The notes beneath the pieces were generated by a model. It was given only the letters and a program-made list of their open reading frames with translations. It was not told the origin of the DNA and ran no database searches. From Hexactinellida sp. DTS-2022 (taxonomy: Eukaryota; Porifera; Hexactinellida): a DNA stretch of 64,000 nt. Position numbers and translations under genes: made by a program. Shown here piece by piece: positions 2,725 to 57,667 of the stretch (position 1 is its first letter; each line of letters starts with the position of its first letter). Where the stretch lies: assembly GCA_028753945.1 (NCBI GenBank), contig JAPNXP010000018.1, positions 1,954,001-2,018,000 on the forward strand, in the 5' to 3' direction.

Positions 2725-2750
2725 CACAGTGGGCAAATCAGCGGTCATAG
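2725..2750. repeat. Transib left terminal inverted repeat (short spacer)
   Basis: The heptamer CACAGTG (2725-2731) is followed by a 6-bp spacer (ggcaaa) and then the 13-bp block tcagcggtcatag (2738-2750). The same 13-bp block occurs at the other end after a 16-bp spacer. The spacer lengths are read directly from the sequence; any role in end pairing is inference. Confidence 0.85.
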
Positions 2751-3369
2751 CTCAAATTTTGTGGTCTGTGTATTTGGTCAATTTCTTAAATATGTGTTGC
2801 TAGGATACTCAAGGACCATAGAAATGTAATTTATTTTATCAAATTCCATCTGCAAGTCAAGATATTTTATTTTGAATAACAATCACTAACTATGGTTTCC
2901 AAGATAAAACTAGAGTTTTCAAATTCCATTAAGTTTCAAAAGCTAAATTTAATACATAAAGAAGCTTTCCAGGGCATTTGAAATTATTCTAGTATCAGTT
3001 TTTCTTCTAGTTTCCAGATATTTGTCTATAATTAGTATATCTCTTATGGTTTCCGAATTCGTATCATTTATTTTATTCAGTTTTTCGATCATAATTTTTC
3101 TATATTTAATGCCCGATCTCATACATACACCTATTCTATCTTAAAACTACAAAAAATTCTCTTTAAGAAATAACCAGTCACTAATTGACATCATTTGACC
3201 CAAAAATGTTTTATACATTATTAAACTGTTCATCGGACAAAAATTTCGGAAAATTACTAAATATTCCAATACTTGTGGTTCAGTATAAAATTTAAATATT
3301 GATAACTAATGTGTTTATTTGTTTAATTAATGCTAATGATGTTAATATATTCAAGTTATCCAGTTAGAA

Positions 3370-5515
3370 ATGAATAATATTGAAGCATTCAATATTCTAG
3401 ATGAGTGTAACAATAATACACGTGAAGCATCCGAACAGATAGCACGTGAATTTCAAATCCCTGAAACAGAATTACCATTCATCCGTTCGAAGTTAATACA
3501 TCTCAAGAACAACAGACGAGATTTCGTGAAGCGTGGTGATTTAACGTAATTAACAACATGGGAAAGAATGCACTTTATTGATAATTCTCACCCTAAGTCC
3601 CTGATCTTGAAAAAACGAAAATCTTCTTCAGATTCTTTGTCTGAATCTATGCACCGAGTTGTTTTCGAAATTGACGAAAATGTTGAAATGCGAACACCAC
3701 TTCTTAAGTTACAGTATAAACAAATCAGACGCCGCCTCGACTCTGTATTGTCACACATTAAGTCGCTAGCTGAGCTTGAGGAAGTTTCACAAAAGGTAAT
3801 TGCATCTTTGTGCCTTCAGTTAATAGCCAACGAAGAAAAAGATTATGCTACCATAAATGTGTGCAAGGAAATTGTCGAGAAGGGGACTTATCTGGAACAT
3901 AATTCCACGTTATGTGAAAGGAACTCCTCATTTCTGTTAGATTTTCTTTGCATCGGGAAAGTAAAGTACAGAGAGTTGAGACGATTTTTAAAAGAAGACA
4001 ACGTTTACATATCGTCGTATAACAAAGTCGCCAAATTTCGCCAGGAATCATGTCTAGTCAATGAAATGCAATATTTCATAGAGACTTCGAAACACCGATT
4101 GGAATCTACATTACTTATCGATTGCTTGTTGCTCAAACCATTCGGCAAATTGTTGAGATTGAAGCAATTGATACGGCCAATTACCCTCTTAAGGCGAAGC
4201 TGGTTGATGGTTTAGATGGATCTGGGTCACACACCATATACAACCAAATGCGAAACCATCCTGATATCACAACAAAAAATTTCCTCTTGTTTGCATTTAA
4301 GATCATTTGGCTCCAAGATTCGTTTGGCAATACGATATGGAGGAATCCATCTCCAAATTCACCTTTCACTATGAGGCCAGTAGCATTATTGGCGCTAGGA
4401 GAGAATCGTGAGAATGTAGAGTATTTGATGGACTCTACTATTAATCCAGAGACCAAATTCTTGCAACTAAATGGAGTCATGTTAGCAGCGGGAAAAGTGA
4501 ATGTTGATATCACGTGTTGTTTGTTCGACACCAAAATGGCAGCTATCCTTGATGGTGCAGGCGGAGCTTCTTGCCTTTTGTGCACGTCAACGAAAGAACA
4601 ACTTACTGACATAGAACTCATTCAACAGGGGTTTCCTATTAACCGTTCAATTGACTCGGCTAATCAAATCTTTGATGAGATAAACGAAGAGGAATTTCTC
4701 TCTCTACCAAGCAAAGAGAGGTTTGGAATAACGCATAAACCATCATCAGATCTAAACATTCTATCAGCTTCTCCTCTTCACGGATATCTGCGGGTATTCG
4801 GGTGGTTTATGCAGCTTTTGTACCATCTACAAGCTGGAGAGAAAAATGGAGACCAACTTCACCAAAGATTCGTCAGTCTATGGAATTTGTACGTAGTTTC
4901 CTATGGGAGAAGCTAAGTATCCATATTGATTGTCCTTCTCCTCAAGGAGGTACGACTTCAACAGGGAATGTAGCTCGTAGCTGTTTTCAACGATTTGATG
5001 ATAGTAAAAGGATTTCTTTTACTGGATTATCACTTTAATCCCCTGTGAATACCACCTACCACTTGGTTTCATATACACAAATTTAGCTGTAATATTGCGA
5101 ATATTCAATTGTGATGAGCTTATCGACAGCGATAAACTATCCACATTGTGTAAAGACACTTATCAGCTAATTGTTGAAACATTTGCTTGGGCGAGTATTA
5201 CTCCTACTTTGCACAAAGTGTTAGCTCATAGTGCCCAACTGATTGAACAGTTCAATGGAGGCAGAGGATTGAAATCCTTTTCTGAAGAAGGCTTGGAGGC
5301 TTGTCACAAATACATTCGACGCTACCGTGAACAATTGGCCAGAAAGATATCTTTCGAAGCAAACCTCAAAGATGTATGTATTCCTCCGTCTCGTTTCCCA
5401 GTCTGATTTCTTCTCATTCTCACAAAGAAGGCTTATTGGTAGCAAAACTGCTAAAAAGAAGTCGAAACAGATTTCTAAAAACGATCAACTATTTGAAAGT
5501 ATTGTTTTGTTGTGA
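3370..5515 (+). pseudogene. RAG1-like (Transib) transposase, broken
   Basis: This was a DDE transposase of about 700 codons, the Transib/RAG1 length. The likely start is ATG 3370. An in-frame TAA at 3547 interrupts the N-terminal part. Frameshifts occur near 4081, 4840 and 5035, and another lies near 5390. Recognisable parts in order are: VDGLDGSGSHTIYNQ (first catalytic Asp, matching RAG1 D600), PNSPFTMRPVALLA, CLFDTKMAAILDG (second Asp, RAG1 D708), CLLC (matching the CTLC zinc ligands), LHKVLAH (matching the RAG1 HKTLAH zinc-binding histidines) and FSEEGLEACHKYIRRYRE (catalytic Glu, RAG1 E962). All key residues survive although the frame is lost, so decay is moderate. The DGS-x-n-Y-x-Q form looks closer to Transib than to vertebrate RAG1. 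Confidence 0.9.
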
Positions 5516-5815
5516 TGATTCAACTGTAGTTTGTTCCATAAAGCATAATATTGCTAAGTTAAAAAGCAGAAAATTTAATGTAACTCGCTTATTTATAATC
5601 TATATATGGACACATGCTACTAGTATAAATAATCCAACTGGATCGCTGATAGTAATTAAAATATTGGCAGATTTTTTAATTTTAATTTTTTGCTAAGTCA
5701 TCATAACTTAAAAAATAGAAGCCATACCAAAAAAAATTGTGCTCATTCAATTTGTTATAGGTGATAACCCATAGGTAAATAATACATTTAGTACCTCTAG
5801 CATGCACCTAAATAC

Positions 5816-5851
5816 CTATGACCGCTGATGTACCTGTTTTTGCCCACTGTG
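5816..5851. repeat. Transib right terminal inverted repeat (long spacer)
   Basis: Reading inward on the minus strand from 5851: CACAGTG, then the 16-bp spacer ggcaaaaacaggtaca, then tcagcggtcatag, the same 13-bp block seen at the left end. The right end therefore holds 10 extra bases between heptamer and block. The spacer contains gcaaaaaca, which loosely resembles the recombination-signal nonamer. It sits next to the heptamer rather than 12 or 23 bp away, so I do not claim it as a nonamer. Confidence 0.85.
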
Positions 5852-5856
5852 CTGAC

Positions 5857-6660
5857 ATTGGGGTAACTCTGTGATAATGAATTAAATAGTGCAGTTTCAT
5901 AATCTGTAATAATACCAGTTGCTGTAAAGGGTAGAATCTCTTTAACCTTCATCATTACTTTATCGTACAATGTTCTGGTCTTCTTGGTCATCAGGATGTG
6001 AATAGCTGGTAATGAATAAGTCTTATATTGGAGGAAAATATTTAGTAACTGGTAAAACTGTCTGGGAACAACGTAAATGTAGCATCTACTTGCACCAATG
6101 ATTCATTTGCATCAGATTGGAAGGTAGTTATCCATCTAGGACCCATGAATCCTATTGCAACCTCACTCAGATCCATACCTTCAATTGAAAATGCATGGTA
6201 TACTTTAAACTCTTCATCGCAAGTTTCTAGTAGGGATATTGCATTTGGGCATTTAAAGGCACCTGTGGTCTATGCAGCTATGCATCCGTCTTCTTTTAAA
6301 CATTGAATTTTATAATCGAGGAAAGCTAATATAGCCACCAACTTCTGATTGATTGACTTCTTCATCAAAGATTTCACGAAGTGTTCCTTGCGAAATTTCA
6401 GATTTACGTTTAATTCTGGATACAACCTTGCTTATTTCAGTTTGATTTTCTGTTGATCCCGGACATAAGTGTTCACCACTTACTGAAAATACATCTGATT
6501 CCAAATCTAATCTAGCACGAGCTGGACATCCATCCCTGTATTTACTACATTTCATATATCTTACACCATTACAATCCTTGTCTTTCCTATAATTGTAAGA
6601 CCCATTGCGATAAACTTTCGAATCCTTCCGATAACCTTCCATAACTTCGTAGCTGGCCAT
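5857..6660 (-). pseudogene. MULE transposase N-terminal half with FLYWCH finger
   Basis: The segment starts near 6660 (MASYEVMEGY). It encodes a FLYWCH-type zinc finger: Y-x-C followed by GCPARARLDLES and then a Cys-free GEHLCP tail. This DNA-binding domain is known to derive from Mutator-like transposons. After a stop near 6310, a second frame encodes the start of the MULE catalytic core, with QVDATFTLFPDSF (first catalytic Asp), MTKKTRTLYDKV and IITDYETALFNSL (second Asp). Internal stops and a frameshift around 6050-6290 show decay. The coding sequence runs straight into the TSD of the Transib insert at 5856 and continues at 2719. Confidence 0.87.
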
Positions 6661-6844
6661 TTTTTGGATAATTCAATAAGTGATTATGTTGCATACGTAG
6701 AAAGTATTTATAGTAGATACATTCTAGAATCCCTATCAAGAAATAACACATTCATTATTAGAATCCCTATCAAGGAATACATCCATTATTAGAATTTAGA
6801 ACCCTATTAAATAATAACAACCAACAATAAAAGACAAACGGTAT

Positions 6845-7195
6845 TAAAACTCGGCCTTATTCCAGTAATGGATAATTTTCGGCCTTAGGCAATTCGGCCT
6901 TATTCCAGTATGGATAATTTTCGGCCTTAGGTAATTCTGCCTTATTCCAGTATTGGATAATTCGGCCTTAGGCAATTCGACCTTAGGCAATTCGGCTTTA
7001 ATCCAGTATTGGATAATTTTCGACCTTAGGCAATTCGGCCTTATTCCAGTATGAATAATTTTCGGCCTTAGGTAATTCTGCCTTATTCCAGTATTGGATA
7101 ATTCGGCCTTAGGCAATTCGACCTTAGGCAATTCGGCCTTAATCCAGTATTGGATAATTTTCGACCTTAGGCAATTCGGCCTTAATCCAGTTTTC
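6845..7195. repeat. subterminal tandem array of the MULE, right end
   Basis: A mirror-image array of the left-end units, with repeated ggcaattcggccttattcca. It is more degraded than the left array: two variant unit types alternate, giving a higher-order period of about 180 bp (compare 6885-7010 with 7035-7170). The 117-codon frame read through it is an artefact of the repetition. Confidence 0.9.
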
Positions 7196-7250
7196 AAAAT
7201 ATGGAAATTTGGCTCGAATTTTCGGCCTTAGTCAGTTAACCCACTGATAG

Positions 7251-8151
7251 CACATCATTTAGGATCGGGGAAAGCTTATTTGCTGCCAGTGCTTGTCGGT
7301 GCAGAAAACAATGTATAAATTTGCAATTTGGGGCAATTGGTCTCATCCTGGCTACAAATCCTTTGTGAACACCCATCATGGAAGGTGCACCATCGGAACA
7401 GCAACCGACGACTTTTTGAAAATCCAATTCATGAAGATTAAAGAAATCCAAAATTTGACTATGGATATCTTCTCCTCGCGTTGTTGTTGATAAATTAACA
7501 GAATGCAATAGATCTGATATTAAACTATTATCATTAGCGTTTAGGTAACGAACAAACACGAGTAGCAAAGCCTCACTTGCAACAGTAGTACTTTCATCCA
7601 GCTGGATAGCAAAATAAGGAGAATTACGGACTTCCTGAATAAGTTGATTCTCGCAGTCCACAGCCATTACATCAATTCTTCTCTTCCTGTATCGTTCGAA
7701 AGAGGAATTGATTTAATCTTTTGTGCAGAGCTTTCACTTAACATTGTTGCAACAATATCAATGCAACATGGCTTTATTAATTCTTCTGCTATAGTATGAG
7801 GTTTCTTGGCCTTCGCAATAGCCAGGCTTACATTGAATGATGCAATAACTGCATTATCCACGTCTCGTGCTTTTTTTGTGAAGAGATTAACTATATTTGA
7901 TGATTGGTTTGAGAGATATAGCTCCTTTTTTCTCAAAAAGAAAGAACGATCGAGATAAATAGTCGCAACATGTTTTGTGTATTGGTGGCGTTTCAGTTTA
8001 GAAGGTTTCATTAACTCGTTACTCAGCATCTCCCGCACAAGAAGCAAATTGGTTTTATTGGAAGAGTTTCGGAAGGAATAAATCCCAACATAAGATAGCT
8101 CTCATTATAAGTTCGCTGCTTTATTTCACCGTTATTAGATCGTTTTGCCAT
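7251..8151 (-). pseudogene. hAT transposase, N-terminal part (frameshifted)
   Basis: This is the first half of a ZBED5/SCAND3-like hAT transposase. The best start is the ATG at 8151-8149, giving a basic start (MAKRSNNGEIKQR). A degenerate BED-type zinc finger follows, with a FLCG cysteine segment and KPSKLKRHQYTKH. The catalytic core begins with PYFAIQLDEST (first Asp) and VVGCCSDGAPSMMG (second Asp), then FIHCFLHRQALA, all typical of the hAT fold. The frame shifts near 8045-8060 and again near 7690. The gene is cut at 7250 by the MULE and resumes at 1229. The coding sense matches on both sides of the insert, so the break is later than hAT insertion. Confidence 0.9.
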
Positions 8152-8758
8152 AGTAAAAATACTTGTTAACAACAGTAATAGTTTGTACTATGATGAAAAT
8201 AATATTATACTTTGGTAAAGAACGTGTATCCTATATATATCGTAAAGATTACCAAATACGATCGTATACGATCAGCTTTATTTATTAATGACACGAAAAT
8301 GCAAACTGATGATAGTTCAGAAATTAATAATTACTTGACGACATTCTTCTAACTGACAATGGCTTTGTATTCTAACTAATTAGCACTTAGAAACAAAGAA
8401 ATATAGCCAGATGAATTAGTTCAACACTTTGGGAAAACATATAATTATCCGAGTGAAATAATCGAGCGTACATATTTGAATAACATAAAGTATAATTCAA
8501 GAAAAAACAATAGATAAAATTGTCAAAGGAAGGAGTAATGTTAGATTCAATTAGAATACTTTTATTAATTTAGATATAAGTTTATGCAATTTAAATAAGT
8601 AGTAGATACATAATCTATGCTAATAAAATACAGATTTTTGGAGACTCACCATGGAGCCCGCGGACTCCCGCGGACCCCCTAATACACAGCGGTCCCTTAA
8701 ATCATTCGCGGACCCCTTTTGGGTCGAGGACCCCAGGTTGAGAACCACTGGGTTAACC

Positions 8759-9815
8759 GAATCCAGCATTATTTCGAGTTACTAAAGAGCAGAATATTAT
8801 CTAATGATGCCATTCTTCCCCCCCCCCCCCCACGCGAAATGGATCACTACATTTGGGGAAGGGTACAGAGTGTGTCCCAAGCAAGGAATTATCCAGGATC
8901 GCGATACGCTCCTTTAGGAGCATGATTTTGGGAAAATTTGAATCTAGGAGCGCGAAAATTTGGAAACTTCTCCTATACCGTAACGTTAATTTGTGATTTA
9001 GGCGTATGAAAATTGGATCAGACCAGGATTAGGAGCGTGTTTACAAATGTATGCAGAACACACTGGTCACAAGTGCACTTCACCTTTACCAATAAGGTGA
9101 ATCCTGACGGCTCGATTATTTTGCTTTATTCATTAAATACTAAAGCTATATTGTACACCAACCGACCAAAATTATTTGAACAACAGGAATTTTATTTGAG
9201 ACACAATATGCTTCTTGCTGCTTATTAACGGCAGTTTAGCCTGCTCTGAAACAATTTAAATTTTGGCAGTTTGGTGTTCTTGATACATACAAGCTGCTCT
9301 TCCCCGCTAGCGCGTTCTTACAACTTGCACTCAGGCCTATGGCACTCACTTGTAATTCAAACAATTGCCTTTTCATATAAAATGCCGGTTGTATTTAATT
9401 ACATACTCCAATAGACGTAATGCGAATTCAGTAATTTTATATGCTTGAGCTCAAAACGAATCTGGGCGCCTATAAAAAAACTTTCGGTTTTGAAACGAAA
9501 TGTAAAAGAATTATATACCCCCTCCCTAAATCACGCTTTTTCCATTTTACAATAAAAAGGACGGCTGTAATACTTACCCCTTGAGCATTATGTAAATTCA
9601 AAGGCCATATACAACAGGTTGATTATATTATGGGGAATCGTATGTATAATATTTAGGTTACCGCTGGTGACCCACAGAACTGTAATGCTATTGTTTCAGA
9701 GTAGGGCTGTGTCCCCTAAGCTGTCTATTATATATTTCGAATGCCTTGGTTGGTGGGTAAACACCGAACGCGGACATAAAACATTCTGACTCATCACCTG
9801 TTATTTATATCTATA
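8759..9815. other. unassigned DNA
   Basis: No gene supported. It contains a C12-type homopolymer at about 8818-8832. A stretch with repeated aggagcgYg motifs (8905-9035) resembles the GGAGCGCGCTCC repeat at 12654-12780. Confidence 0.4.
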
Positions 9816-9819
9816 TTAT

Positions 9820-10470
9820 TAAATCGCGATTGTTGTGTGTGCGTTTTTGTTTGTTTGTCTGGATTGTATTAAAGTGATCGGGAAATAGATTTCGAATTGT
9901 GAATAGAAATAGCATTATATATGAGATATAATATAAGTTCCAAATGTTATAATAAGTAACAAATGTTATAATAGGTAACTAAGATTGCTGATTTCGAATA
10001 TCGCATTTATAAATTTATAGTATGATATTTGATGTTGTTGTTTACACAAAATAGGTAACAAATTAATGAAATTCAAAATCAACCTAGAAGTTTGCTTTCG
10101 AAGGGTATTATGGGTAAACAAGTACGCTGAACACGGATTTCGCATTTAAAAAATTCTATCGTGAAAAACAAGTTTTAACAATCGAAATCTTATAAAGGGA
10201 TGTACATACCGTCCCTTTCTACCATTCGCCATGGCAGAAATGGTGAAGATTAAGGCCCCACAGCGACCGTTTACTTAAAGTACGTTGCACCGATTCGTCG
10301 CTAAGCGAACCGAGACCGACGGACACGTAAAATCAAAACTCGAATATTGTTTGTGTGTGTGTTTGTCTGGTGTTTGTCTTGATTGTATTAAAGTGATCGG
10401 ACACAGCTGGAATTTTAGAATTTTCCATTTCATCATCTCTATAAAGTTAATAGTGATGATGACATAAAAC
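9820..10470. repeat. dispersed non-coding repeat, two partial copies (Helitron-like?)
   Basis: A copy starting at about 9820 (tctatattattaaatcgcg, then a T/G-rich stretch and ttgtattaaagtgatcgg) is followed at about 10330 by a second partial copy with the same T/G-rich stretch and attgtattaaagtgatcgg. Between them, at 10295-10325, is a GC-rich piece (cgtcgctaagcgaaccgagaccg) that matches 12465-12495. The tctatattattaaa start and a short GC hairpin near the other end recall non-autonomous Helitrons, but no CTRR terminus was seen. Helitron identity is tentative. Confidence 0.35.
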
Positions 10471-10795
10471 GAAACTAATATCCCAACTGTGCCGTCAGCA
10501 TATTCTAACGAGGTACTATCAATGCGCCAATTACAAAAAGATAGTGCCTTCAAGGCACATGCTGTCGGCAGACCTGGGTTTTAGAATTTTCCACGTCATC
10601 ATCACTATAAAGTTTATAGTAATGATGACGTTAAAAAATCTAAAATCCCAGCTTGCCGAGAGCAAGTTTTATGGAGGCACAATCACACGCCAATCACCAA
10701 AAGATAGTGACTTCAGGAACATGTTTCGGGCACAGGTGCAATTTTAGATTTTTTCCGCGTCATCATCACTATAAACTTTGTAGTGATGATCATAG
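10471..10795. repeat. two decayed palindromic miniature elements with hairpin linkers
   Basis: Old copies of the palindromic miniature element found intact at 39155 and elsewhere lie at about 10471-10585 and 10637-10755. They keep the cactatca..atagtg pair and an aattttagattttt end. Between and after them is the hairpin gtcatcatcactataaa / tttatagtgatgatgac, which also borders the younger copies. Age is inferred from divergence. Confidence 0.55.
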
Positions 10796-11244
10796 GAGTA
10801 AATTCTTCCACAAATCACTAAAATGTTCCCGGCCAAGATATTAACCCATAGGCGTAGAAGTAGCTCACGCAGCCGGAGATATACAGGATCGAATTATCAA
10901 TTTACTATAATACTATAATTTACCGATGATGCCTTCTCCAAAGACTGGGGGTATTTATTTGTAGTGTTAATTAATTAGCCCCACAAATAGATTACTCCCA
11001 AATTGAATATTTTTTAGCCGACAGGAAATTGTTAGCGATACTTGGCTGTTTTGAGCCATCGTCAATATACCTTTTTGACATTCTCGGAGAACAGGTAGGA
11101 GACTAACACCTGTCAAGGTAAATAGCAACTAAAATATTATAAATTGGATTACGATACTGAATGAGAAATTCAATAAAGTGCACTATATAAGTTTTTGAGA
11201 AGGCATCATCGTAGGAATAATACTATTACAGCAGGGTCTTTTTT

Positions 11245-11425
11245 ACTGTGCCGACTATACTATAGTATAGTGGCCCAGTATTGGAATCACTGCCTTTATT
11301 ATTATTTATATTTTTTCTCCGTATACGGTGCCCTGACCACGCCTTGATACATTGCATTGAGGGCTGAAACTTGGCATGTAGCTTCGGATTGACCGTCTAA
11401 TTTGCACCTGGGGTTAAAAACTCAC
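11245..11425. repeat. fragment of dispersed repeat with the 18-bp palindrome
   Basis: It contains the perfect palindrome ACTATACTATAGTATAGT at 11254-11271, flanked by ctgtgccg and ggcccagta. Then follows a (tta)n stretch and a segment matching the array units near 38450 and 51320 (agggctgaaacttggcatgt, gtctaatttgcacctggggt). This is a separate copy outside the large arrays. Confidence 0.7.
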
Positions 11426-12019
11426 TTTCATTAACAATTTAAATTTGAACTAATAGATCATTATTTTATATTTCCAGTAAAATGTCATATATACTTAGCT
11501 CACACAATCTGAGACGATTTTAATATGAAGATATTCTTAGAGGAGTGACTAGGATCAGTTAATCAGTGTATTATACAGCCATTTGTAAATTAACACAATG
11601 GGCGTGGACTTACTCATTATCGAATCATGACGTAATTATTAAAATCAAATAGTCTAATTTGACTATTCTATGCCTATTTATGCCATATAATTAAGGATAG
11701 CAGTATTAAACAACAAACGAACAGCGAATCGGGTTGTGTGTGATTGTGTTCTGCCTCGAAGCGATTCAGAAGGCAAATTTTGATAGTAATCATTATAATA
11801 ACTTAAATACCAATGTTGTTTATACTATATGATTTATATTTATATCTGCAAATATTTGGTACATACTTGAATCACAACTGAAGGAATTCATGCCACAGAT
11901 GCAATTAAATTATGTCAATTTTGAAAATGTTTTGTCTCTTAGAGTCATATTTTGAATAATTGAATACTTCCATAAAACATGAAGAAATTACCTACATAAA
12001 AGCAATATATTACACGGAA

Positions 12020-12240: not shown

Positions 12241-12389
12241 AATTGATATATTGGGTAGTCAGTCAAAATTTAGAAACATGTAAGGGTAATAATGAGAACC
12301 TTATCCTCTGATATAATTTAGACTAGAAAATTTCCCCAGAGACTTATAGTTGCTATTTCACTTCGGGAATTGTTTTAAGTATTGTTTTA

Positions 12390-15430: not shown

Positions 15431-15436
15431 CTTAAG

Positions 15437-17238: not shown

Positions 17239-17239
17239 T

Positions 17240-32315: not shown

Positions 32316-32320
32316 CTGAA

Positions 32321-33439
32321 CACAGTGGGCATTTTCAGGGGTGTAAAGGGAAATAGGAAAACTATGCTAGATAGACTCTAATGAAGTATTATTGACATAT
32401 AGGTTATCGGTAGCTGCAAACCGAATGGCAATATCAAAAACGATATATGTAGTCTCCTAACAGTAGTTTTGGACGATCAATGATAAATTCATGCTTTATT
32501 ATATTTTTGGTTTTGTAACAATCATATATTAATCACCCATGATTATTGATAATACATCTTAAACTTGGGTAAAAATAATTGGAATGTTAGTCTTATCCCA
32601 GGTATTCTATATCGCATTGAATTTATAGAAGGGTAGATGGATGCTGAGTGTAACTATCGCAGGTGCAATTACTCTTAGGAAACCCTAGATAGTTTTAGAT
32701 AGCATAGTTGTATAATATGGAACATTGCTAGCGCCTAAATTTCTTCCGGATCTCATAAAATTATCTTACTGAAATTCAAAAGCATGGATGAATTCCTAAT
32801 TTGGTTGCTGATTGAGAGATTTGACTTTAAAAATTCATAAACTGCTTTGTTATTTGAATAAATAGTGGATAAATTAAATATATATTATAGGAATTTTCAG
32901 AGGGGACAATGGTAAATTCAAAAAATATGTAGAGGGGGGGGCTTGGGGGGGTCTAATATTTAGGATATATCAAGTCAATAAGTATTTAGACTAATTAGAA
33001 TCAATGAAATAACTGACCATTATGGACCACCCAAAGTTTTTGAACTGAATGTGAAAATTATTTAGTGTCCGATCTTATGAAAATCTTTCTTGATAATCTG
33101 GCAACTTCAGACTCAAAACTCGTTTCAAATTTATCTTAACTGATATCATATTGACTAGAAACACTAGTAAGATAAACTGCTATTGCGCATCAGATTAGCA
33201 TACACTAGAGTATAGTTATGGTGAATTCAATTTCAATGTTTTCCTAACCACAACATTCTGTTTTGAAAATGAGTATTACGCTACTCATTCCTTTTCACAG
33301 TAGTCATTGTCATTGCATTGTTAAACTTTAAAAATTGAGTTTTAGAGGTTTTAGGTTATGCTGAATCCAAAAAAAAGTATAAGTAATAGATTTGACAATG
33401 TTATAAAGTTACACTATTTCCCCTGTTTTGCCCACTGTG
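32321..33439. mobile_element. non-autonomous Transib-type element (1,119 bp)
   Basis: The ends are CACAGTGGGCATTTTCAGGG (32321) and, at 33439, the inverse of CACAGTGGGCAAAACAGGGG. The exact 5-bp TSD ctgaa lies at 32316-32320 and 33440-33444. The terminal heptamer and first ten bases equal those of the RAG1-like element at 2725-5851. No transposase frame is present, so it would need help in trans. A block gggaaatag lies 10 bp further from the heptamer at the left end than at the right. Confidence 0.92.
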
Positions 33440-33748
33440 CTGAAATCCTTCAGGTAGCATTAGATCAGTATTACATTCCAATTAAATAAACTTCCTTAAC
33501 TTTAATACTGAGAGAGAATAGTTGATTTGAATTACCTAATTTAATTGATGCCTATCTAACGTCATGCCAAAAATCAGTGCCTTTGTATAGAGTATATTAG
33601 TGCATAAATTACGTAAATAACAAATATAATAAATATCATGTCTAATAGATAAAACTTAAATATATTTTTTTTAATTTTTTCTCTTATGTACTTTTTATAG
33701 ATACATTTCTATTTTTTTAATTTTTTGTGTATTTTTATTTTTATACTA

Positions 33749-35677: not shown

Positions 35678-35683
35678 GGGATA

Positions 35684-48964: not shown

Positions 48965-48993
48965 TGCATCTAACCATAGACTATTATTACAGT

Positions 48994-49509
48994 TTACGAA
49001 TGACCAAAATGGCTATCAGTCCTCCCTGTTTGGGGAGGAGAAGAAGCTATCTTAGACATTAGACCGTAAAGTTGGCAGTCATCGCAACCAGATGCCAATA
49101 AACCTAACAAACTGTTATTCGTTACGTCTCGCTGTAAACTAGGAAAACTGAAATCGATTTCATCCAAACTCCTCTTATTGAGTTCTACAGTGTCAGGATA
49201 TGAGCTAGCAGATACTAACTGAGTACTGATATGCTCTACCAATTGGGATACATCATTGGTAATGATAGACTTACGCGAACTGATCATTTGCTTAACGAGA
49301 TGCTGAAAGTTTCCTCTATTCAATCTCCATTTGGAGCTGAGAGAATCGCGCTTAGTAGCCTTGTTTTTTCCAAAAAGAATAATTGATAATTTTCCCCAGA
49401 CAGATTTTGGCTTATGTTTGTCCCCTTTGTTCAAAGCATCTCTTATGTTATCGAAGCTTTCATAGCCGAGTTTCTGGAGAGCTTCGACGAATTGCTCTAT
49501 TGAAGTCAT
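48994..49509 (-). CDS. N-terminal part of the OTU transposase (ORF1, 171 aa)
   Basis: It starts at ATG 49509 (MTSIEQFVEALQKLG) and ends at a stop just before ORF2, in the +1-relative frame. A Trp-rich segment (SVWGKLSIILFGKN) and SSKWRLNRGNFQHLV suggest a folded, perhaps DNA-binding domain that I do not recognise. ORF2 coding sense begins about 10 codons upstream of its own first Met and overlaps the ORF1 end by about 25 nt. A single-base indel near 49010 most simply explains the split; no canonical slippery heptamer is visible in the overlap. The decayed homologue at 58335-57674 covers the same junction as continuous homology. Confidence 0.6.
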   Translation of the reverse strand: MTSIEQFVEALQKLGYESFDNIRDALNKGDKHKPKSVWGKLSIILFGKNKATKRDSLSSKWRLNRGNFQHLVKQMISSRKSIITNDVSQLVEHISTQLVSASSYPDTVELNKRSLDEIDFSFPSLQRDVTNNSLLGLLASGCDDCQLYGLMSKIASSPPQTGRTDSHFGHS

Positions 49510-49614
49510 TACTAGATGAAATAATAATAATTATTTTAATTTCTCTATTGAAGTAATTACTAGATGAAATAATTATTATTATTTTAATTAATCAATACAT
49601 ACATATATACTACT

Positions 49615-49838
49615 ACAGTAGAACCTCGTTAGTTTACGAACACGGTTAATTAATACGAATTTCCGGATAAGAAGAACAGTTCCACAAAATCAGGTCCCAA
49701 CAATGGCGATTGAATGGGTATTACTCCGGTTAATACGAACTTCGGGTAAAGCGAACAAATTTTTATCGTCCGTTGGTATCGACTGCATATAGTAATTATA
49801 TTAGTATTCGAGGCCGGCGGTATTTCCTTCCGCCGGCC
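49615..49838. repeat. fragment of a pogo/Tigger-like element and GC hairpin
   Basis: It starts cagtagaacctcgttagtt after TA (49613-49614), the typical pogo-like terminal sequence, and continues with ggttaattaatacgaa words. No matching right end was found. At 49812-49838 the perfect hairpin ggccggcgg / ccgccggcc stands out by GC content. Both lie in the 5' noncoding part of the OTU element. Confidence 0.55.
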
Positions 49839-50239
49839 TTGGGCATCCAAACCTTGAAGGCCACGTTATTGTAAATTAAATTTAGATCTGATCATTCAAA
49901 ATGTAGTGGTAAAAATATCGGTCCGGCCATGGCCTGCCCTGGTATTATTAAAATAAAAAAATAAAAAAGTAGCTAAAAGGCAAATAAATAAATAAAACTC
50001 ACTTGAATTGGAAGAATCGACTTGGAGGAATAAAGAAGAGAGCAGAAAATGAAATGAGAAGAAAATGGAGATGAGAAATATGTTGTAAAGTCAAAAAGAT
50101 CTTTGAAAAAAAGTGAAAAGTGTGTTGAAAAAAATGAAAAAAATTCGAAGAAAATCAAGTAGAAGAAAGGCAGTGTACAATTTATAGTGAGAAATATCAT
50201 TGAATTATAAACAAAGGATATAATAAATTCTGATCAATA

Positions 50240-50651
50240 GTTATTAGACAACATATTCTACATTGTGGATATTGGATAGGTATGCAAATCATCATTGTAA
50301 GCCGATTTTAGTGAAATTTATGTTCATAATATTTTTTCAAAAATGGATATTTTGTTTTGAAATTTTCATGACAGGTTGTGATAGGTGAGATAGACATGTG
50401 ATTATAAGGAAAATTTGATTTGATGCATAATTTTTGAGTTATTATGGAAAAACCGAGGTCTAAATTTGAGCGAAAATTGCTGAGTCATCTTAAGGAATTT
50501 TGACATTTTGGGATTATATATGGGTTGTCACAACTTTCATCTTTCCGCTGATGTAAAAAAAATTCACGTACAGCGTAAACTTTTTGAGTTATTAGCATAA
50601 ACGTGAGGTCTGCGAATCCGCCGATGAATCCGCCGCTAAGATAACACTCGT
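50240..50651. repeat. right terminal inverted repeat of OTU element
   Basis: About 410 bp, inverted relative to the left end and in a single copy. The inner limit near gatattggataggtatgcaa carries a small insertion compared with the left (gatattggaaatcatc). The interval 49840-50240 between it and the gene is AT-rich (runs of gaaaaaaatgaaaa) with no gene. Confidence 0.9.
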
Positions 50652-50660
50652 ATAAATAGT

Positions 50661-52770
50661 GAGCTTGATAAAATCTGCATATTTGGATAGAGAATTAAAT
50701 TCTACACCTTTTCACAGTTCACGAATTTTCAAATTGGGCTTAGTTTGTGCCACAATTGAGTTGAAAACTTCTTTTGTTTACTCACACTTCAATTTCAGAA
50801 AACTGTTAAATCTAATTCTATTGTTTCAACTTGTAGCAATTATATTGATTTCACTTGTTAAATCTTAACTCTATTGTTTAACTTGCGATAATTAAATTGA
50901 TTCAACTTATAATTTCCAGCTGGCTTCTATTTAATTGTAGTATTAATATACAATGGATTAAATAAAATATAATAATATAAGGAATTTGTTGACTAAACTC
51001 AAATCACCGTGGATAACATTGCTAAAATAACTAACTAATAATATAATTTATTATAAATACAAAATGAATGAATGACATTAAACTCAAGATGGTTTGTGAT
51101 AGAAACAAACTTCAAATTTATCAACCGTTCCTTGTGGCTCGGATCAATTAACACATGGATCATGACACCTTGAGGCGTTGATGACATGGCGAAAAAAATC
51201 CAAAATTGCAGATGTGCTGACAGCATGTTCCTTTGGAGGCACTATCAATAAACCACCAACAAGATATAGTGCCACCAAAGGAACATGCGTCGGCACAGCT
51301 GCAATTTTGGATTTTTTTCTCCGTAGCAGGTGCCCTGGCCACACCTTTGTACATTGAGGGCTGAAACTTGGCATGTAGATGCGGAGTGACCGTCTAATTT
51401 GCACCTGGGGTTACGAATTTTGATCAAAATATTTTAACACCTATTTAAACTAATTATGGCTCATAACATTAAAAAAATAATATTGAGCTTGATACATTTT
51501 ACATGTACGGATAGAGAATTAAATTCTACACCTTTTGGCAAATCACAAATATTCAATTTAGCCTAGGTTTGTGCCTTAATTGGGGTACCAATCTCCTGTG
51601 TTTCCTCACACTTCAGATTCAGTAAACTGTTAAATATAATTCTATTGTTTCAACTTGTAATAATTATATTGAATCTAATTCTATTGTTTCAACCAGGGAA
51701 TGAAAGGTTCACGAACGAACTTATTGAACTTTAACTGAACGAACTGAACGCAGGGCTTTTAAGGAATTCACGGTGAACGAACTGAACGAACGCCAACGGT
51801 TTCCGAACGGCAATTGAACGAACTGAACGAACTAAATTGAACGGATTGAACGAACTGAACTGAACGAACTAAACTGAATATAGATAAATTATAAATATTG
51901 ATCCATTAAATATAATAGATGAATGCAAAAGTGCTAATTCCGGACATCCCTAGTGGACTCATGTCTCTTAGTTTAGATTCTAGCTTCTTAACCTAAACTT
52001 CAATAACAGCTTGGGGCATAGATCAGTCTATCATAAACGGAATAGTTCGACCCACTCACTGTACACTGAACGAACTAAACGGATTGAACGAACTGAACGA
52101 ACTTAATTGAACGGATTGAACGAACGCGGGTTAGCCCGTGAACGAACTGATCGAACGCTGGTGGAGCTGAAGTTAGGAGATGAACTTGAACGAACTGAAC
52201 GTACGTTAATTTAAGATGAACTGAATAGCGTCAATTCAGTCCGTTCGTGAACCTTTCATTCCCTGGTTTCAACTTGTAATAATAATATTGATTTAACTTG
52301 TTAAATCCTACTCTATTGATTCAACTTGAGATAATTATATTGATTTAACTTATAAATTCCAGCTGGCTTCTATATACTTGTAGTATTACTATACAATGGA
52401 TAAATAAAATAATATAATATAAGGAATTTGTTGACTAAACTCAACTCACCGTGGATAACATTGCTAAAATAAATAACTAATAATATAATTTATTATCAAT
52501 ACATAATGAATGAATGGCATTAAACTAAAGATGGTTTATGATAGAAACAAACTTCCCATTTATCTACCGTTCCTTGTGACTCGGACCGATTAACAAATGG
52601 TTCTAGACACCTTGAGGCGTTGATGACTGGGCAAAAAAAATCCAAAATTACAGCCTGTGGTGACAGCATGTTCCTTTGGAGGCACTATCAATAAACAACC
52701 AACAAAATATAGTGCCACCAAAGGAAGATGCGTCGGCACAGGCTGCAATTTTGGATTTTTTGATTATCTA
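50661..52770 (+). repeat. dispersed-repeat array (right block of MULE interior)
   Basis: Continues the array of 38236-44316 on the other side of the OTU element, in the same orientation. Palindromic miniature elements are at 51192-51318 and 52633-52761. A hAT-like element (51694-52265) interrupts one unit. The break at the OTU element falls inside a unit, confirming that the array is older. Confidence 0.85.
51694..52265. mobile_element. CAGGGAATGAAAGG hAT-like element (572 bp)
   Basis: The ends cagggaatgaaaggttcacg and cgtgaacctttcattccctg are inverted. The exact 8-bp TSD gtttcaac lies at 51686-51693 and 52266-52273. Same family as 21157-22003, but with few tandem gaacgaact words, so array length varies between copies. 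Confidence 0.95.
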
Positions 52771-52811
52771 TTATAACTGGGGTGTTGGAATTGGATTTTG
52801 AATATTACAAT

Positions 52812-53175
52812 CAGGGGCGGCACTAGCGCGCCACCACTGAAGGGGATAAAACGGGCTGAGTATTTCTTTATGGGGCTGACACAGAATGCTGTTCCTTTGA
52901 GCAAATAACCATTTGTACTTAATTTTTTTAATAATCATTAAATCAGGGTTTTTTTTAAGGCCGATCTTGGTGTAAAATTTGCACCAAGATTTTTTGGAGT
53001 TACACCACGATTCGGGTCGGCAGCGGCTGCTGCAGTGTTGAGCTGAGTTGCACCAAGGTCTCAACCTTAAAAAACCCTGCTTTAAATAATCATCACACCC
53101 ACTGTGGACTGATGGGGCTGACAAAATTTAGATAGGGCGCTAGCCCCATCTATTCTCATGCTAGCACCGCCACTG
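52812..53175. mobile_element. hAT miniature element (364 bp)
   Basis: The ends caggggcggcactagcg and tgctagcaccgccactg are inverted. The flanks attacaat and atttcaat match at seven of eight positions. A second miniature element lies inside it. Confidence 0.85.
52944..53079. mobile_element. hAT-like miniature element nested in 52812-53175 (136 bp)
   Basis: The ends cagggttttttttaagg and ccttaaaaaaccctg. The flanks cattaaat and ctttaaat match at seven of eight bases. The interior repeats ttgcaccaag / cttggtg. Confidence 0.83.
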
Positions 53176-53204
53176 ATTTCAATAGGCCCATGTTCGCAGC
53201 AGGG

Positions 53205-53610
53205 TTATATCCATGTAGCGAACTGTCCACGTAGCGAACTGGCCATGTAGCGAACTGTCCATGTAGCGAACTGTCCGTGTAGCGAACTGTCCACGTAGCG
53301 AACTGGCCATGTAGCGAACTGTCCATGTAGCGAACTGTCCGTGTAGCGAACTGTCCACGTAGCGAACTGGCCATGTAGCGAACTGTCCATGTAGCGAACT
53401 GTCCGTGTAGCGAACTGTCCACGTAGCGAACTGGCCATGTAGCGAACTGTCCATGTAGCGAACTGTCCGTGTAGCGAACTGTCCGTGTAGCGAACTGTCC
53501 GTGTAGCGAAGTGTCCGTGTAGCGAACTGTCCATGTAGCTAACTGTCCTGTAGCGAAGTGTCCGTAGCGAACTGTCCGTAACGAACTGTCCGTGTAGCGA
53601 ACTGCCCGTA
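53205..53610. repeat. 16-bp array with 64-bp higher order, right end of large MULE
   Basis: About 25 units of gtgtagcgaactgtcc. Between about 53228 and 53480 four slightly different units (cgtagcgaactggcc, atgtagcgaactgtcc and others) repeat as a 64-bp block four times. Several long frames (FATWTVRYMDSSLHGQ repeats) are artefacts of the repetition. Orientation is mirror to 35684-35902. Confidence 0.93.
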
Positions 53611-53615
53611 TCCCA

Positions 53616-54046
53616 TATATTGAACATAACCAGGTATTGGATCATCTGGTAGAACAGAGCGGAAATGCCTTTGAATTTCAAAAATATCTACTAAATCATA
53701 ATTTGAAAATCTTTCTATAGATTTAGCGTCTGATTTAATTCGTCTTAAAGTTTGTTGCGAGATTAGATTAGTGAAATTCCCTCTCTTGAATGCCTCTACA
53801 TTGTTATCATTTCTAAATTGCTGATGAAATATATTACCCACTGAGCTTAGCATCAAATTTGCACCCATTTTTTCTCTTCGTCCAGAAGTAATGTGGCGCG
53901 CATGAATAGTTTTGTCATCTTTGTGTTCTAATGAAAGTTGACCGTCGGATTTAAACTGCACGGTTATTATATCTCCACCAAATGAGACAAAATCATTTTC
54001 AATTGAAAAGGTAACTGAAATGTAGTTAGAAAATTTACACACAGCC
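53616..54046 (-). pseudogene. old OTU-transposase gene, middle part
   Basis: The second piece of the old gene lies between two insertions. It encodes CKFSNYISVTFSIENDF, then SFGGDIITVQF, KTIHARHITSGRREK and QTLRRIKSDAKSIERFSN. These match the younger protein at about residues 238-380 in the same order (CKFKDCFEF, TTVHSRNLSHSHRLE). The frame is open from 54042 to the MULE junction. At 54046 it meets the end of the Transib-type element, beyond which coding continues at 57674. Confidence 0.85.
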
Positions 54047-57000
54047 CACAGTGGTCCAGAATGGCGATTATCTTCGAATAGGCATTTTTACACAACCTAG
54101 GTACATAGAATGTATTATTTGGGTATGGGTTATCGACCCTAAGAAAGCGATTGGTGTAATCAGAATTCTTGTATGGCTTCAATATCTGTAATTATGACGT
54201 CATCAAATTTGAAAAATTGTCTTTCATATCTAAAATGTTATTTATCTTGATAATAGAGTACCGAAATATATTAATTAGGCATATGATGACATTCCTAGGA
54301 TATCGATTGGGATTATTTATTATTTTAAAATATTTATAAGTTATTCAATTATCCAATAACAAGACATTATTATCTTTCTGAGCTTCAACAGTTCACATAA
54401 ATTTCCTAGATTTTAGGACTTTCTCTTCAATAAAGATTTTTTGTCAGTATCTATTGATTTACCGGAGATAATTGAACATTTATTTCGCTTTGGGATTGAA
54501 AGGGAGTATCATTCCAGCTGTCCAATTTACCATTTTAAAGCATTTTTAGAAATCGCACTAGCTCTGAAATTAAGTCCCTAAAACGGTAGCGAAAATGTTC
54601 ATTCTCTGTTTCAGGTAGCTGGAATATCTCCAAAAATTCATTCGTTACTATAATGCGTGTTATTGTGCGAGTATTTTACACTTTCCATTTAACCATAATG
54701 AAAAAATATTTTAGAAACATTTTCTTTTCTTAAAATTATGTGTACCGCACTCCCTTCCAGCTGCTAAACGACCATCCGCGCGCCTCCGCGCTACCCTGAA
54801 CCCTATATGATATATTTTCAGAATATAATGATATTTCAAATGAAATTAATTTCATCTAACGCTTTGAAATGCGTCAAAAGTTATGACACAATAAACTTCT
54901 ATCGATAAACTTAAAATATTTTTAGGTCTTCATGTACTAATATCTACTTACACTCATCCTTTAGAGCTCTGATGTTGTGTTTATCTTAAAGTACACTTAA
55001 AACTGATTTAGAAACATTTCTTCCAAATTTAAAATCCTCCAAATACGAAAAGACACAAAAAAATCCAAAATTGCACCCTGTGCCGACGCATGTTCCTTTG
55101 GTGGCACTATATTTTGTTGGTTGTTTATTGATAGTGCCTCCAAAGGAACACGCTGTCGGCGCAGGCTGCAATTTTGGATTTTTTTTAGCCAAGTCATCAA
55201 CGCCCAAGGTGTGAAGAAGCATTTGTTAATTGGTCCGAGTCACAAGGAACGGTAGATAAATTTGAAGTTTGTTTCTATCTTAAACCATCTTGAGTTTAAT
55301 GCCATTCATTCATTATGTATTGATAATAAATTATATTATTAGTTATTTATATTAGCATTGTTATCCACGGTTGAGTTGAATTAAGTCAACAAATTGCTTA
55401 TATTATATTATTTTATTTAATCCATTGTATGGTAAATTAAATAGAAGCCAGCTGCAATTTATAAGTTAAATCAATTTAATTATCGCAAGTTGAATCAATA
55501 GAGTAAGTTTTAACAAGTTAAATCAATATAATTATTACAAGTTGAAACAATGGAATTAGATTTAACAGTTATACTGAAACTGAAGTGTGAGTAAACGAAG
55601 AAATTTCAACCCCAATTTATGGCAGAAATAAAACTCTTTATTGAAAGTTTTCTTCTCCCATCAGACGCAGAATTTTATGGTGAATCCAAATGTGAAATAA
55701 AATTTGGGGGTTTAGTAAAAGATATTTTGAGTTATGGACCAGACAAATTTTGAAAGGTGTTAAAGATGTGTCAAAAATTTGTTAATCAAAAATCGTAACC
55801 CCAGGTGCAAATTAGAAGTCGACTCCGAACCTACATGCCAAGTTTCAGCCCTCTATGTAAATAGGTGTGGCCAGGGCACCGTCTACGGAGAAAAAAAAAA
55901 TCCAAAATTGCAGCCTGTGCCGACGCATGTTCCTTTGGTGGCACTATATTTTGATTGTGGTTTATTGATAGTGCCTCCAAAGGAACATGCTGTCGGCACA
56001 GTCTGCAATTTTGGATTTTTTTTCGCCATGTCATCATCACTATGAAGGTGTTAAATTATTTCAAAAAGGTGTTTCAGAAGGCATCGACCCTTAAAGTGTT
56101 GGAAGTTTCCATTTAGCTCACTTAATTTTAGAGATATTCAAGTTTGAGTAGAATATAATAGCTGATGACTCAGCATTTTTAAAGTGCGTGTTGGGTATTC
56201 ACCCAACTCCAACCAACCCATGCGAATTATTTAATTCACAAAATTGTAAAAATACATTTTTTTGACGATGTCATCATCACCTCAAGGTGTCAAGACCCAC
56301 TTGTATAGGTGGTACGTGGCATAAGGACCAATTGATAAATTGAAAGTTTGTTTCTATCTTGTATCATCTCTGAGATTAATGAAATTTAGCTAATTAGTAT
56401 AAATAATTAATTAATAAATTAATAATTTAACACCATTATTATGTACAGCAAAATAAATTAAGTTCAATTATTTGCAATTATTATTAATTTAAATTGAATT
56501 TCACTATAATATTTGAATTCCACGTACTCGATAACCCCAATAATCCAATTGGAACCGTCTATAAGTTAAATACAAAAGGAATTAATTATAATTATTTACG
56601 TCAGTACATTAATTGTGAAAGAATATTCTCGCCGAAATAAATATAATCACTTAATCTGTCGTTGTTGTGGAATGTAAAATCTTAACGGTTCTATCATAAA
56701 CCATCTTTAGTTTAATGCCATTCATTCATTACTTATTAATAATAAATTAAATTATTATTTATTTATTTTAGCAATGTTATCCACGGTGAGTTGAGTAAAG
56801 TAAACAAATTCCTTATATAAATTAATATAATTTAATCCATTGTATAGTAATACTATAATTAAATAGAAGCCAGCTGTAATTTGTAAGTTAAATCAATATA
56901 ATTATCGCAAGTTGAATCACTAGAGTAGGATTTAACAAGTTAAATCAATATAATTATTACAAGTTGAAACAATAGAATTAGATTTAACACTTTACTGAAA

Positions 57001-57667
57001 TTGAAGTGTGAGTAAACAAGTAAATTTCAACCCCCATTTATGGCAAAAATTAAACCCATTTTAAAAAGATTTCTTCTCCTAACAGACGCAGAATTTTAAG
57101 ATGAATCCAAATATGAAATAAAATTTGGGGGTTTAGTAAAACATATTTTGAGTTATGGACCAGACAAATTTTGAAAGGTGTTAAAGATGTGTCAAAAATT
57201 CGTTAATCAAAAATCGTAACCCCAGGTGCAAATTAGACGGTCCATACGCACCTACATGCCAAGTTTCAGCCCATCAACTATAAAGCTCTGGCCAGGGCAC
57301 CGTCTACGGAGAAAAAAAAAATAATAATAAAAATAATAAAGGCAGTGATTCTAATACTGGGCCACTATACTATAGTATAGTCGGCACAGTAAAAATAATA
57401 AAAATAAAGGCAGTGATTCTAATCCTGGGCCACTATACTATAGTATAGTCGGCACAGTAATAAGATAGAAAAATTACAAAAAATACTGTTATTAAATTCT
57501 CTTTGCAAGTCAAGGTTTACCAGAGCATAGTCCAAATATATTTACGTTTGATCATCAAAAAATTACGGATTCTAGGGTTTTCGACTCCGCTGAAATCGAT
57601 TATAATAGTTTCGAAACGATTTGACGTGGTCAATTTTTTGCCTATTCAAAGATGCTGGACCACTGTG
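54047..57667. mobile_element. non-autonomous Transib-type element, with repeat array inserted
   Basis: The ends are CACAGTGGTCCAG at 54047 and, inverted, at 57667. CAGCC follows at 57669-57673 and precedes at 54042-54046, a GC-rich 5-bp TSD with one extra G at the right junction. Coding of the old OTU gene resumes on both sides. After the heptamer, the block ctt(c/t)gaataggca lies 18 bp away at the left end (54072-54084) and 9 bp away at the right end. Its own sequence is about 54047-55050 and 57470-57667. No transposase frame seen. The interval 54085-55050 is AT-rich and non-coding. Confidence 0.8.
55057..57460 (-). repeat. dispersed-repeat array, inverted orientation
   Basis: The same units as 38236-44316, reading on the minus strand. 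Palindromic miniature elements are at 55057-55188 and 55891-56022. The 18-bp palindrome is at 57364-57381 and 57432-57449. It lies inside the Transib-type element, outside the large MULE, so the array family spreads independently of that MULE. Confidence 0.85.

What the first reader, a model, noticed from the sequence alone, without database searches (positions are those of the whole stretch)
2725..57667. Three CACAGTG-ended elements each show a 9-10 bp spacing asymmetry between their two ends
In element 2725-5851 the block tcagcggtcatag lies 6 bp from the left heptamer and 16 bp from the right. In 32321-33439 the block gggaaatag lies 10 bp further at the left (about 20 versus 10). In 54047-57667 the block ctt(c/t)gaataggca lies 18 bp (left) and 9 bp (right) away. 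One short and one long spacer, differing by about one helical turn, resembles the 12/23 rule. If general, it would suggest that paired-end asymmetry predates RAG recombination signals or arose in parallel. The spacings are read from the sequence; the link to function is inference from three copies.
Basis: partly seen in the sequence, partly recalled or inferred. Interest (0 to 1): 0.85.

Follow-up and report, generated by a model that had tools for sequence, protein, structure and literature searches.

The report
Transib transposons with lopsided ends
A large group of jumping genes related to the vertebrate antibody-gene recombinase has one short and one long end, differing by about one turn of the DNA helix in nearly every copy checked, which resembles the short/long pairing rule of antibody-gene assembly.

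Summary
They are Transib transposons. Element 1 carries a broken transposase; the genome gives 140 related matches. A 712-aa copy matches HzTransib at 2.8e-25.

The asymmetry is general. Of 54 transposase copies examined, 33 gave both ends; a family-specific block sits 9-10 bp deeper at the 3' end in 30, ties in one, is shifted by a private deletion in one, and is not found in one. In those 30 the short end is always 5' of the transposase. Among 21 elements with exact 5-bp duplications in the loci scanned, none had two alike ends. Re-pairing ends between families weakens the match (0 of 5000 reach it).

The ends differ beyond the spacer: each has its own inner conserved module. The transposase N-terminus weakly resembles the RAG1 nonamer-binding domain.

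Asymmetric Transib/RAGL ends are already in print (PMC9435367, PMC8355894). Added here: scale, a near-constant step of about one turn, fixed polarity, family-specific blocks, inner modules. A pairing rule is inferred, not shown.

The parts
2720..2724 (.). E1 left target duplication CTGAC
2725..5851 (+). E1: Transib element with broken transposase; 5' (short) end left, 3' (long) end right
2725..2731 (+). E1 5' heptamer CACAGTG
2738..2750 (+). E1 block TCAGCGGTCATAG at the short end (6 bp after the heptamer)
3346..4215 (+). E1 transposase N-terminal part, frame broken by TAA at 3547-3549; contains the region that resembles the RAG1 nonamer-binding domain
4065..4916 (+). E1 transposase part with the first two catalytic aspartates (DGLDG, FDTKM), in another frame
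5008..5406 (+). E1 transposase C-terminal part (SEEGLEA motif; RAG1 Pfam match below its cut-off)
5762..5790 (-). E1 inner conserved module of the 3' end (about nt 62-90 from the 3' heptamer)
5816..5828 (-). E1 block at the long end (16 bp after the heptamer)
5845..5851 (-). E1 3' heptamer
5852..5856 (.). E1 right target duplication CTGAC
32316..32320 (.). E2 left target duplication CTGAA
32321..33439 (.). E2: non-autonomous Transib-derived element; left end is the long (3'-type) end, like the 3' end of transposase copy L020
32348..32356 (+). E2 block GGGAAATAG at the long end (20 bp after the heptamer)
32382..32408 (+). E2 inner conserved module of the 3'-type end
33414..33422 (-). E2 block at the short end (10 bp after the heptamer)
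33440..33444 (.). E2 right target duplication CTGAA
54042..54046 (.). E3 left target duplication CAGCC
54047..57667 (.). E3: non-autonomous Transib-derived element; left end is the long (3'-type) end by homology to the transposase copy at C1:15929076
54072..54084 (+). E3 block CTTCGAATAGGCA at the long end (18 bp after the heptamer)
54108..54134 (+). E3 inner conserved module of the 3'-type end
57639..57651 (-). E3 block CTTTGAATAGGCA at the short end (9 bp after the heptamer)
57669..57673 (.). E3 right target duplication CAGCC, after one extra G at 57668

Best explanation
The elements are Transib cut-and-paste transposons. Shown from sequence: the copies read have the heptamer CACAGTG (or one mismatch to it) at both ends, mostly with 5-bp target duplications, and a family-specific block whose TAG core, where present, lies at nt 23-24 in the 5' end and nt 33-34 in the 3' end. 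Inferred: the heptamer is the cleavage site held by the catalytic core, and the block is the second, specificity-giving site, held by the N-terminal region that resembles the RAG1 nonamer-binding domain. The two subunits of a transposase dimer then have to reach one short and one long end, which favours pairing of the 5' end with the 3' end of one element and disfavours two like ends; the roughly one-turn step keeps the block on nearly the same face of the helix. The inner modules (5': AAACCTAG ending at about nt 95; 3': TATTATTNNCNTATRGGTTATC ending at about nt 88) probably add further contacts or host-factor sites.
For: Transib identity. Step of +9/+10 sole best in 30 of 33 transposase copies with both ends, one tie, never -9/-10 (54 copies examined, 21 dropped because one or both ends were not found). 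By family, sole best in 23 of 25, one tie, one not. score nt 14-30 of the short end, a window chosen, and one search replaces L023 by its undeleted sibling; without these choices the figure is 19 of 24 sole best. Ends go together: own pairs score 9.8 against 5.5 (sd 0.4) for permuted pairs, 0 of 5000 reach it. Transposase pieces of 23 families are 44-84% identical, median 52%. Polarity: ends were entered by their side of the transposase, not by length. Of 30 fetched E2 loci, 17 had both ends recognised and all are long/short; of 10 fetched E3-family copies, 9 had both ends readable and all show the short and the long form. Geometry genome-wide: 270 matches of heptamer plus 3' module, 0 for the reversed-pattern control; 72 of the 100 listed have the identical 88-bp span (many of these are E2-family copies, so not independent). 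N-terminal region: the 13 profile hits below E 0.19 are all RAG1 chains (best 0.015), including the isolated nonamer-binding domain 3gna at 0.09; profile-profile score 28.3 against at most 10.0 in 200 column shuffles.
Against: No functional data. One family (C5_3980) shows no shared block, L005 only a tie, and 7 of 33 copies lack an exact 5-bp duplication, L005 among them, so its two ends may not belong together. The families share one genome and an ancestor, and some are close (four at 71-84%), so the spacing is not 24 independent events. Across pairs of families, similarity of short blocks and of long blocks correlates only weakly (rho 0.19). The domain match to RAG1 is weak (E 0.015-0.14 for closely similar RAG1 chains, so in effect one hit; 3gna only 1.7 with the whole-protein profile; hhalign probability 51%), and the shuffle control used the stretch already picked, so it does not correct for that choice. 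The ends differ in more than spacing, so the asymmetry may serve regulation rather than pairing. The block is not nonamer-like; the short ends separately carry an A-rich stretch at about nt 29-36 that could equally be the domain's site.
Confidence: 0.55

Rival explanations
1. Inheritance without a pairing rule: an ancestral element gained about 10 bp in one end and all families inherited it; the transposase binds both ends but does not care about the spacing.
For: All families lie in one genome and one superfamily; the step is 9 in some families and 10 in others, so exact length is not absolute; a motif common to many families carries part of the signal (264 of 552 cross-family pairs still have +9/+10 among the best).
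Against: Block sequence differs from family to family yet agrees between the two ends of one family while spacing held. Some parts of the ends have drifted nearly to background in 11 distant families (mean ungapped identity 0.31-0.36 at nt 41-60), although nt 11-20 of the 3' end have not (0.52). Among 33 copies no other clear step was found apart from one private deletion and one family without a match.
Confidence: 0.22
2. The two ends differ because of transcription: the 5' end is the promoter and the 3' end the terminator or a host-factor site (as YY1 in ProtoRAG), and the spacing is a by-product.
For: Each end has its own inner module; ProtoRAG ends bind the host factor YY1 and drive transcription (PMC7481187, passages); 6 of 25 families show ATGGC, a YY1-like core, in the extra stretch of the long end (read by eye).
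Against: Non-autonomous E2 and E3 keep both end types, though recent descent could also explain that; the 3' module lies at a nearly constant distance from the transposon tip (72 of 100 listed identical), which a transcription signal does not need; the block itself is common to both ends.
Confidence: 0.18
3. Chance or alignment choice from three copies.
Confidence: 0.01

Closest known systems
Transib transposons with asymmetric ends (Subgroup I, and part of Subgroup II, of PMC9435367; Transib5 of fruit fly and Transib2/N1/N2/N3 of Anopheles as cited in PMC8355894)
   Same: RAG1-type DDE transposase, CAC-starting heptamer, 5-bp target duplications, bipartite ends with one short and one long spacer; a nonamer-binding-like domain is reported for both subgroups (PMC9435367).
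   Different: Here some 25 families of one genome share a 9-10 bp step and, where transposase copies show it, the same polarity; the second element is a family-specific block rather than the nonamer-like motif described in PMC8355894; inner modules at about nt 62-100. The figures and alignments of those papers are not held, so no base-by-base comparison was made and some of these differences may vanish.
HzTransib
   Same: Best solved-structure match to the transposase; D126, D225 and E436 (numbers from a passage of PMC6941560) fall on conserved residues of these proteins, reading the alignment with an offset of 17 that I inferred.
   Different: The aligned part of HzTransib starts at about residue 170 of the L030 protein, so the NBD-like region has no counterpart in that alignment.
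RAG1/RAG2 and the 12/23 recombination signals
   Same: CACAGTG heptamer identical to the consensus; short/long geometry; related catalytic core and a weakly similar N-terminal domain.
   Different: Step 9-10 rather than 11 bp; no A-rich nonamer in register; mobile elements; RAG2 not found, but that search was uninformative because its controls found nothing either.
RAGL transposons ProtoRAG (27/31 bp) and AanRAGL (4/13 bp)
   Same: Asymmetric bipartite ends; the AanRAGL spacers differ by 9 bp (PMC9435367); ProtoRAG works best with a 5'/3' pair (PMC8289069, passages).
   Different: Those carry RAG1L and RAG2L genes; in these elements I saw one transposase frame and, apart from the uninformative, did not look for a second gene.
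Drosophila P element (recalled, from no call)
   Same: Transposase sites at unequal distances from the two ends.
   Different: Unrelated transposase, 8-bp duplications.

Membership tests
Transib superfamily | Transib/RAG1-type transposase | tested here: met
   L030 ORF to HzTransib 2.8e-25; A1 profile 5.6e-40; window piece 5.8e-4
Transib superfamily | DDE catalytic residues | tested here: met
   Both aspartates invariant in 8 of 8 aligned proteins; the glutamate of SEE(G/A)xE in all 5 that reach it, placed by the HzTransib alignment. E1 in the window keeps all three motifs but in broken frames
Transib superfamily | CAC-starting heptamer at both ends | tested here: met
   ends were found by this heptamer (at most one mismatch), so other heptamers would be missed
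Transib superfamily | 5-bp target duplications | tested here: met
   Exact in 26 of 33 transposase copies with both ends; E1 and E2 exact, E3 with one extra base
RAGL (RAG1L plus RAG2L) transposon | RAG2-like gene beside the transposase | tested here: inconclusive
   PF03089 found nothing in the genome, but also nothing in the 14 controls
RAGL / Transib Subgroup I | C-terminal Cx2Cx3GHx4C motif (CTT1) | tested here: not met
   Of 5 aligned proteins that reach the C-terminus only L030 has something close, Cx2Cx3GHx5C; the tail of L010 is supplied by an insert, so 4 are informative
[quoted passage not shown]
   The sequences of PMC9435367 are not held
12/23-type pairing system | one short and one long spacer differing by about one helical turn | tested here: met
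   9-10 bp sole best in 30 of 33 copies
12/23-type pairing system | second element bound by a nonamer-binding domain | tested here: inconclusive
   NBD-like region, weak match; binding to the block not shown
12/23-type pairing system | like-with-like pairs cleaved poorly | not testable with these tools
   needs a biochemical assay; indirect: none of 21 elements with exact duplications in the loci scanned had alike ends

The most novel reading that the evidence does not exclude
Transib transposons of this animal obey a true short/long pairing rule, executed by an N-terminal domain homologous to the RAG1 nonamer-binding domain reading a family-specific block about one helical turn apart at the two ends. 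The mechanics of the 12/23 rule would then exist in a transposon with a single transposase, with polarity fixed relative to the transposase gene and family specificity written in the block.
Probability: 0.33. Interest if true: 0.85.

Novelty: new variant of a known kind. Interest (0 to 1): 0.57.

Why it matters
The origin of the 12/23 rule is debated: one paper proposes that invertebrate RAGL complexes are relatively insensitive to end asymmetry (PMC7204232, passages), another that asymmetric ends are ancestral (PMC9435367, whole text). Some 25 families in one genome, with natural variation in the block, a near-constant step and several transposase frames over 700 aa, make a ready test set for whether a transposon relative of RAG enforces short/long pairing and which domain reads the second site.

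Tried and rejected
Chance: rejected by shuffles and re-pairing. Symmetric copies: looked for in the window and in every fetched locus over 800 bases. 23 rows passed (exact duplication, first 12 bases of the ends within 3 mismatches), which are 21 distinct elements; none had alike ends, 17-28 of the first 40 bases agreeing. That scan needs heptamers within one mismatch of CACAGTG, so Transibs with other tips would be missed.

Copies dropped: of 54 transposase copies examined (30 loci, 20, 4 more), 21 lacked a recognisable end on one or both sides. Second attempts further out (read) found no credible end in L103-L107, L109, L111, L112 and L114; among the new stretches of that call, L116, L117, L121 and L122 gave none either. 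L023 with a step of 14: its sibling L021 has 10, so a private deletion. A pair of short ends at C1:6027513/6031158 shares no duplication and appears to belong to two elements. L137/L138: the long end has lost its block; left out of the counts. E3 copy L153/L154: right end not recognised. Of 30 E2 loci, 13 were not classed by the script; two of these (L041, L056) appear in its second scan as short/long.

Origin of the long end by a 10-bp tandem duplication: self-match by lag peaks weakly at 10 in long ends (0.354) and at 9 in short ends (0.333); not convincing. RAG2 search: uninformative. Structure prediction was not used, since the tool admits only window proteins and loci of other search tools. 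The organism is not identified; 18 contigs and 112 Mb recall Xenoturbella bocki (from memory, not tested); the held library has no paper with both Transib and Xenoturbella. L010's open frame ends in a foldback repeat also seen in E3, so it is not a clean full copy; it was nevertheless a row of alignments A1 and A2.
Full report
WHAT WAS CLAIMED. Three CACAGTG-ended elements show the same internal block at two different distances from their two ends, 9-10 bp apart. All coordinates and spacings are correct: 6/16 bp in E1, 20/10 in E2, 18/9 in E3. E1 and E2 have exact 5-bp duplications (CTGAC, CTGAA); E3 has CAGCC with one extra G on the right.

WHAT THEY ARE. E1 contains a broken transposase in several frames. 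Its 283-aa piece finds HzTransib as best solved structure (5.8e-4) and 140 matches in the 112-Mb genome, some of them pieces of one copy, several in open frames of 700-757 aa. A 712-aa frame (L030) matches HzTransib at 2.8e-25, amphioxus RAG1L at 1.3e-7 and RAG1 at 3e-6. Pfam RAG1 is met above its cut-off for L030 and L028 and just missed by L010. Both catalytic aspartates are invariant in 8 of 8 aligned proteins, the glutamate of SEE(G/A)xE in the 5 that reach it. For E3 the list of frames shows no transposase; for E2, 1.1 kb long, I made no such list. E3's ends match those of a transposase copy at C1:15929076, and E2's long end matches the 3' end of L020.

IS THE ASYMMETRY GENERAL? I examined 54 transposase copies (30, 20, 4 more); 33 gave both ends and 21 were dropped. 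Ends were entered by their side of the transposase. Ungapped matches between the two ends were scored at every shift from -12 to +20, over nt 14-30 of the 5' end, a window chosen after seeing the first table. The shift +9 or +10 is the sole best in 30 of 33, tied in 1 (L005), not best in 2; -9 or -10 is never best; 26 of 33 have an exact 5-bp duplication. One of the two failures (L023, +14) is a deletion in that copy: its sibling L021 has +10. The other (C5_3980) shows no shared block. By family, +9/+10 is sole best in 23 of 25, one tie, one not (with L021 in place of L023); with wider windows and L023 kept it is 19 of 24, and among the best in 21. The TAG of the block, where present, lies at nt 24 (23 in two families) in 5' ends and nt 33 or 34 in 3' ends. 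Of 30 fetched E2 loci, 17 had both ends recognised, all long/short, 8 of them with exact duplications. Of 10 fetched E3-family copies, 9 had both ends readable and all were short/long. Of 21 distinct elements with exact duplications found in the window and in loci over 800 bases, none had alike ends. Single copies vary: L041 and L042 lack one and two bases in the long end.

IS IT MORE THAN COMMON COMPOSITION? Mean match at +9/+10 is 9.8 for own pairs and 5.5 (sd 0.4) for permuted pairs; none of 5000 permutations reaches it. So the block agrees better between the two ends of one family than between families. Part of it is common: of 552 cross-family pairs, 264 still have +9/+10 among the best. 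Across pairs of families, similarity of short blocks and of long blocks correlates only weakly (rho 0.19), and each weakly with transposase identity (rho 0.31 and 0.23). The transposase pieces of the 23 families compared are 44-84% identical, median 52%. Families of one genome are related, so these are not independent origins; what is shown is that the offset held while the sequence changed.

THE ENDS DIFFER IN MORE THAN SPACING. Most 3' ends share an inner module, near AAATGTATTATTTNCCTATRGGTTATC, ending at about nt 88; L009, L012 and L020 depart from it. The pattern heptamer + 62-78 bases + TATRGGTTATC occurs 270 times in the genome and 0 times for the reversed control; of the 100 listed, 72 have the identical span of 88 bp and 95 lie in 87-89; many of the listed are E2-family copies. 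Many 5' ends share another module with AAACCTAG: 117 matches against 3 for the control; 85 of 100 listed have spans of 94-97 bp. TAGG/CCTA words are enriched in both ends of 22 families: 35 against 14 expected in 5' ends, 59 against 22 in 3' ends, the block's own TAGG included. The 5' ends also have an A-rich stretch at nt 29-36.

WHO MIGHT READ THE SECOND SITE? A profile of ten N-terminal regions (A2, one from the window) has 13 hits below E 0.19, all RAG1 chains of closely similar sequence (best 0.015), including the isolated nonamer-binding domain 3gna (0.09); the next, PINK1, is at 0.19. With the whole-protein profile 3gna is at 1.7. Profile-profile comparison with the matched stretch aligns 50 of 50 columns without a gap, score 28.3, probability 51%, against at most 10.0 in 200 column shuffles and 1.7 for the reversed sequence; the stretch had been picked, so the shuffles overstate the significance. 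PMC9435367 (whole text) reports such a domain in other Transibs, which makes the match more credible. By the definition of the signals (arithmetic), the nonamer occupies nt 20-28 of a 12-signal and 31-39 of a 23-signal; here the block occupies about nt 15-27 and 24-36: close but not identical.

MECHANISM. Shown: anatomy, polarity, near-constancy, agreement of the two ends within families. Suggested: the domain resemblance. Inferred: a transposase dimer cuts at the heptamers while its N-terminal domains hold the blocks; one short and one long spacer favour pairing the two proper ends of one element. The block would give family specificity in a genome with many families that share one heptamer. 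The inner modules may add transposase or host-factor contacts; ProtoRAG's ends bind YY1 (PMC7481187, passages).

WHAT IS KNOWN. Asymmetric ends in Transib and RAGL are in print: 12/23-like spacers in a few Transibs (PMC8355894, passages and one section), 27/31 in ProtoRAG with preference for the mixed pair (PMC8289069, passages), 4/13 in AanRAGL and asymmetry in all Subgroup I Transibs (PMC9435367, text without figures and supplements). The held library has no paper with both Transib and Xenoturbella. In the listings (5 of 5 papers; 7 of 7; 15 of 36; 12 of 13) I saw no title or abstract start that describes fixed polarity or a constant one-turn step across many families; I read only parts of a few of them, and most subscription papers are not held, so this is no proof of novelty.

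VERDICT. New variant of a known kind.

Noticed in passing
window 5762-5790, 32382-32408, 54108-54134; genome-wide: Inner 3' module AAATGTATTATTTNCCTATRGGTTATC at a nearly constant distance from the 3' heptamer (270 matches, control 0); some copies hold the palindrome ACCTATAGGT. Function unknown; perhaps a dimer site.
   Followed up: partly
window about 55040-55190 and 55890-56040; C-terminal part of the L010 ORF: A foldback repeat inside E3; a related sequence supplies the last part of the 751-aa frame of L010.
   Followed up: no
window 57320-57460: Two near-tandem copies of a stretch with GGGCCACTATACTATAGTATAGTCGGCACAGTA inside E3 near its right end.
   Followed up: no
window 57668; L063/L064: One extra G between the heptamer and the 5-bp duplication at one end, as if one end had been cut or joined one base off.
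   Followed up: partly
L030 ORF C-terminus: Zinc knuckle CKHCGEIGHIRSEKC (Pfam match below cut-off), close to but not the CTT1 motif of RAG1L; not seen in the four other aligned proteins that reach the C-terminus.
   Followed up: partly
3' ends of L009, L012, L014, L028, C1_15929/E3, C5_2425: ATGGC in the extra stretch of the long end, a YY1-like core as in ProtoRAG TR5 (by eye; PMC7481187 passages).
   Followed up: no
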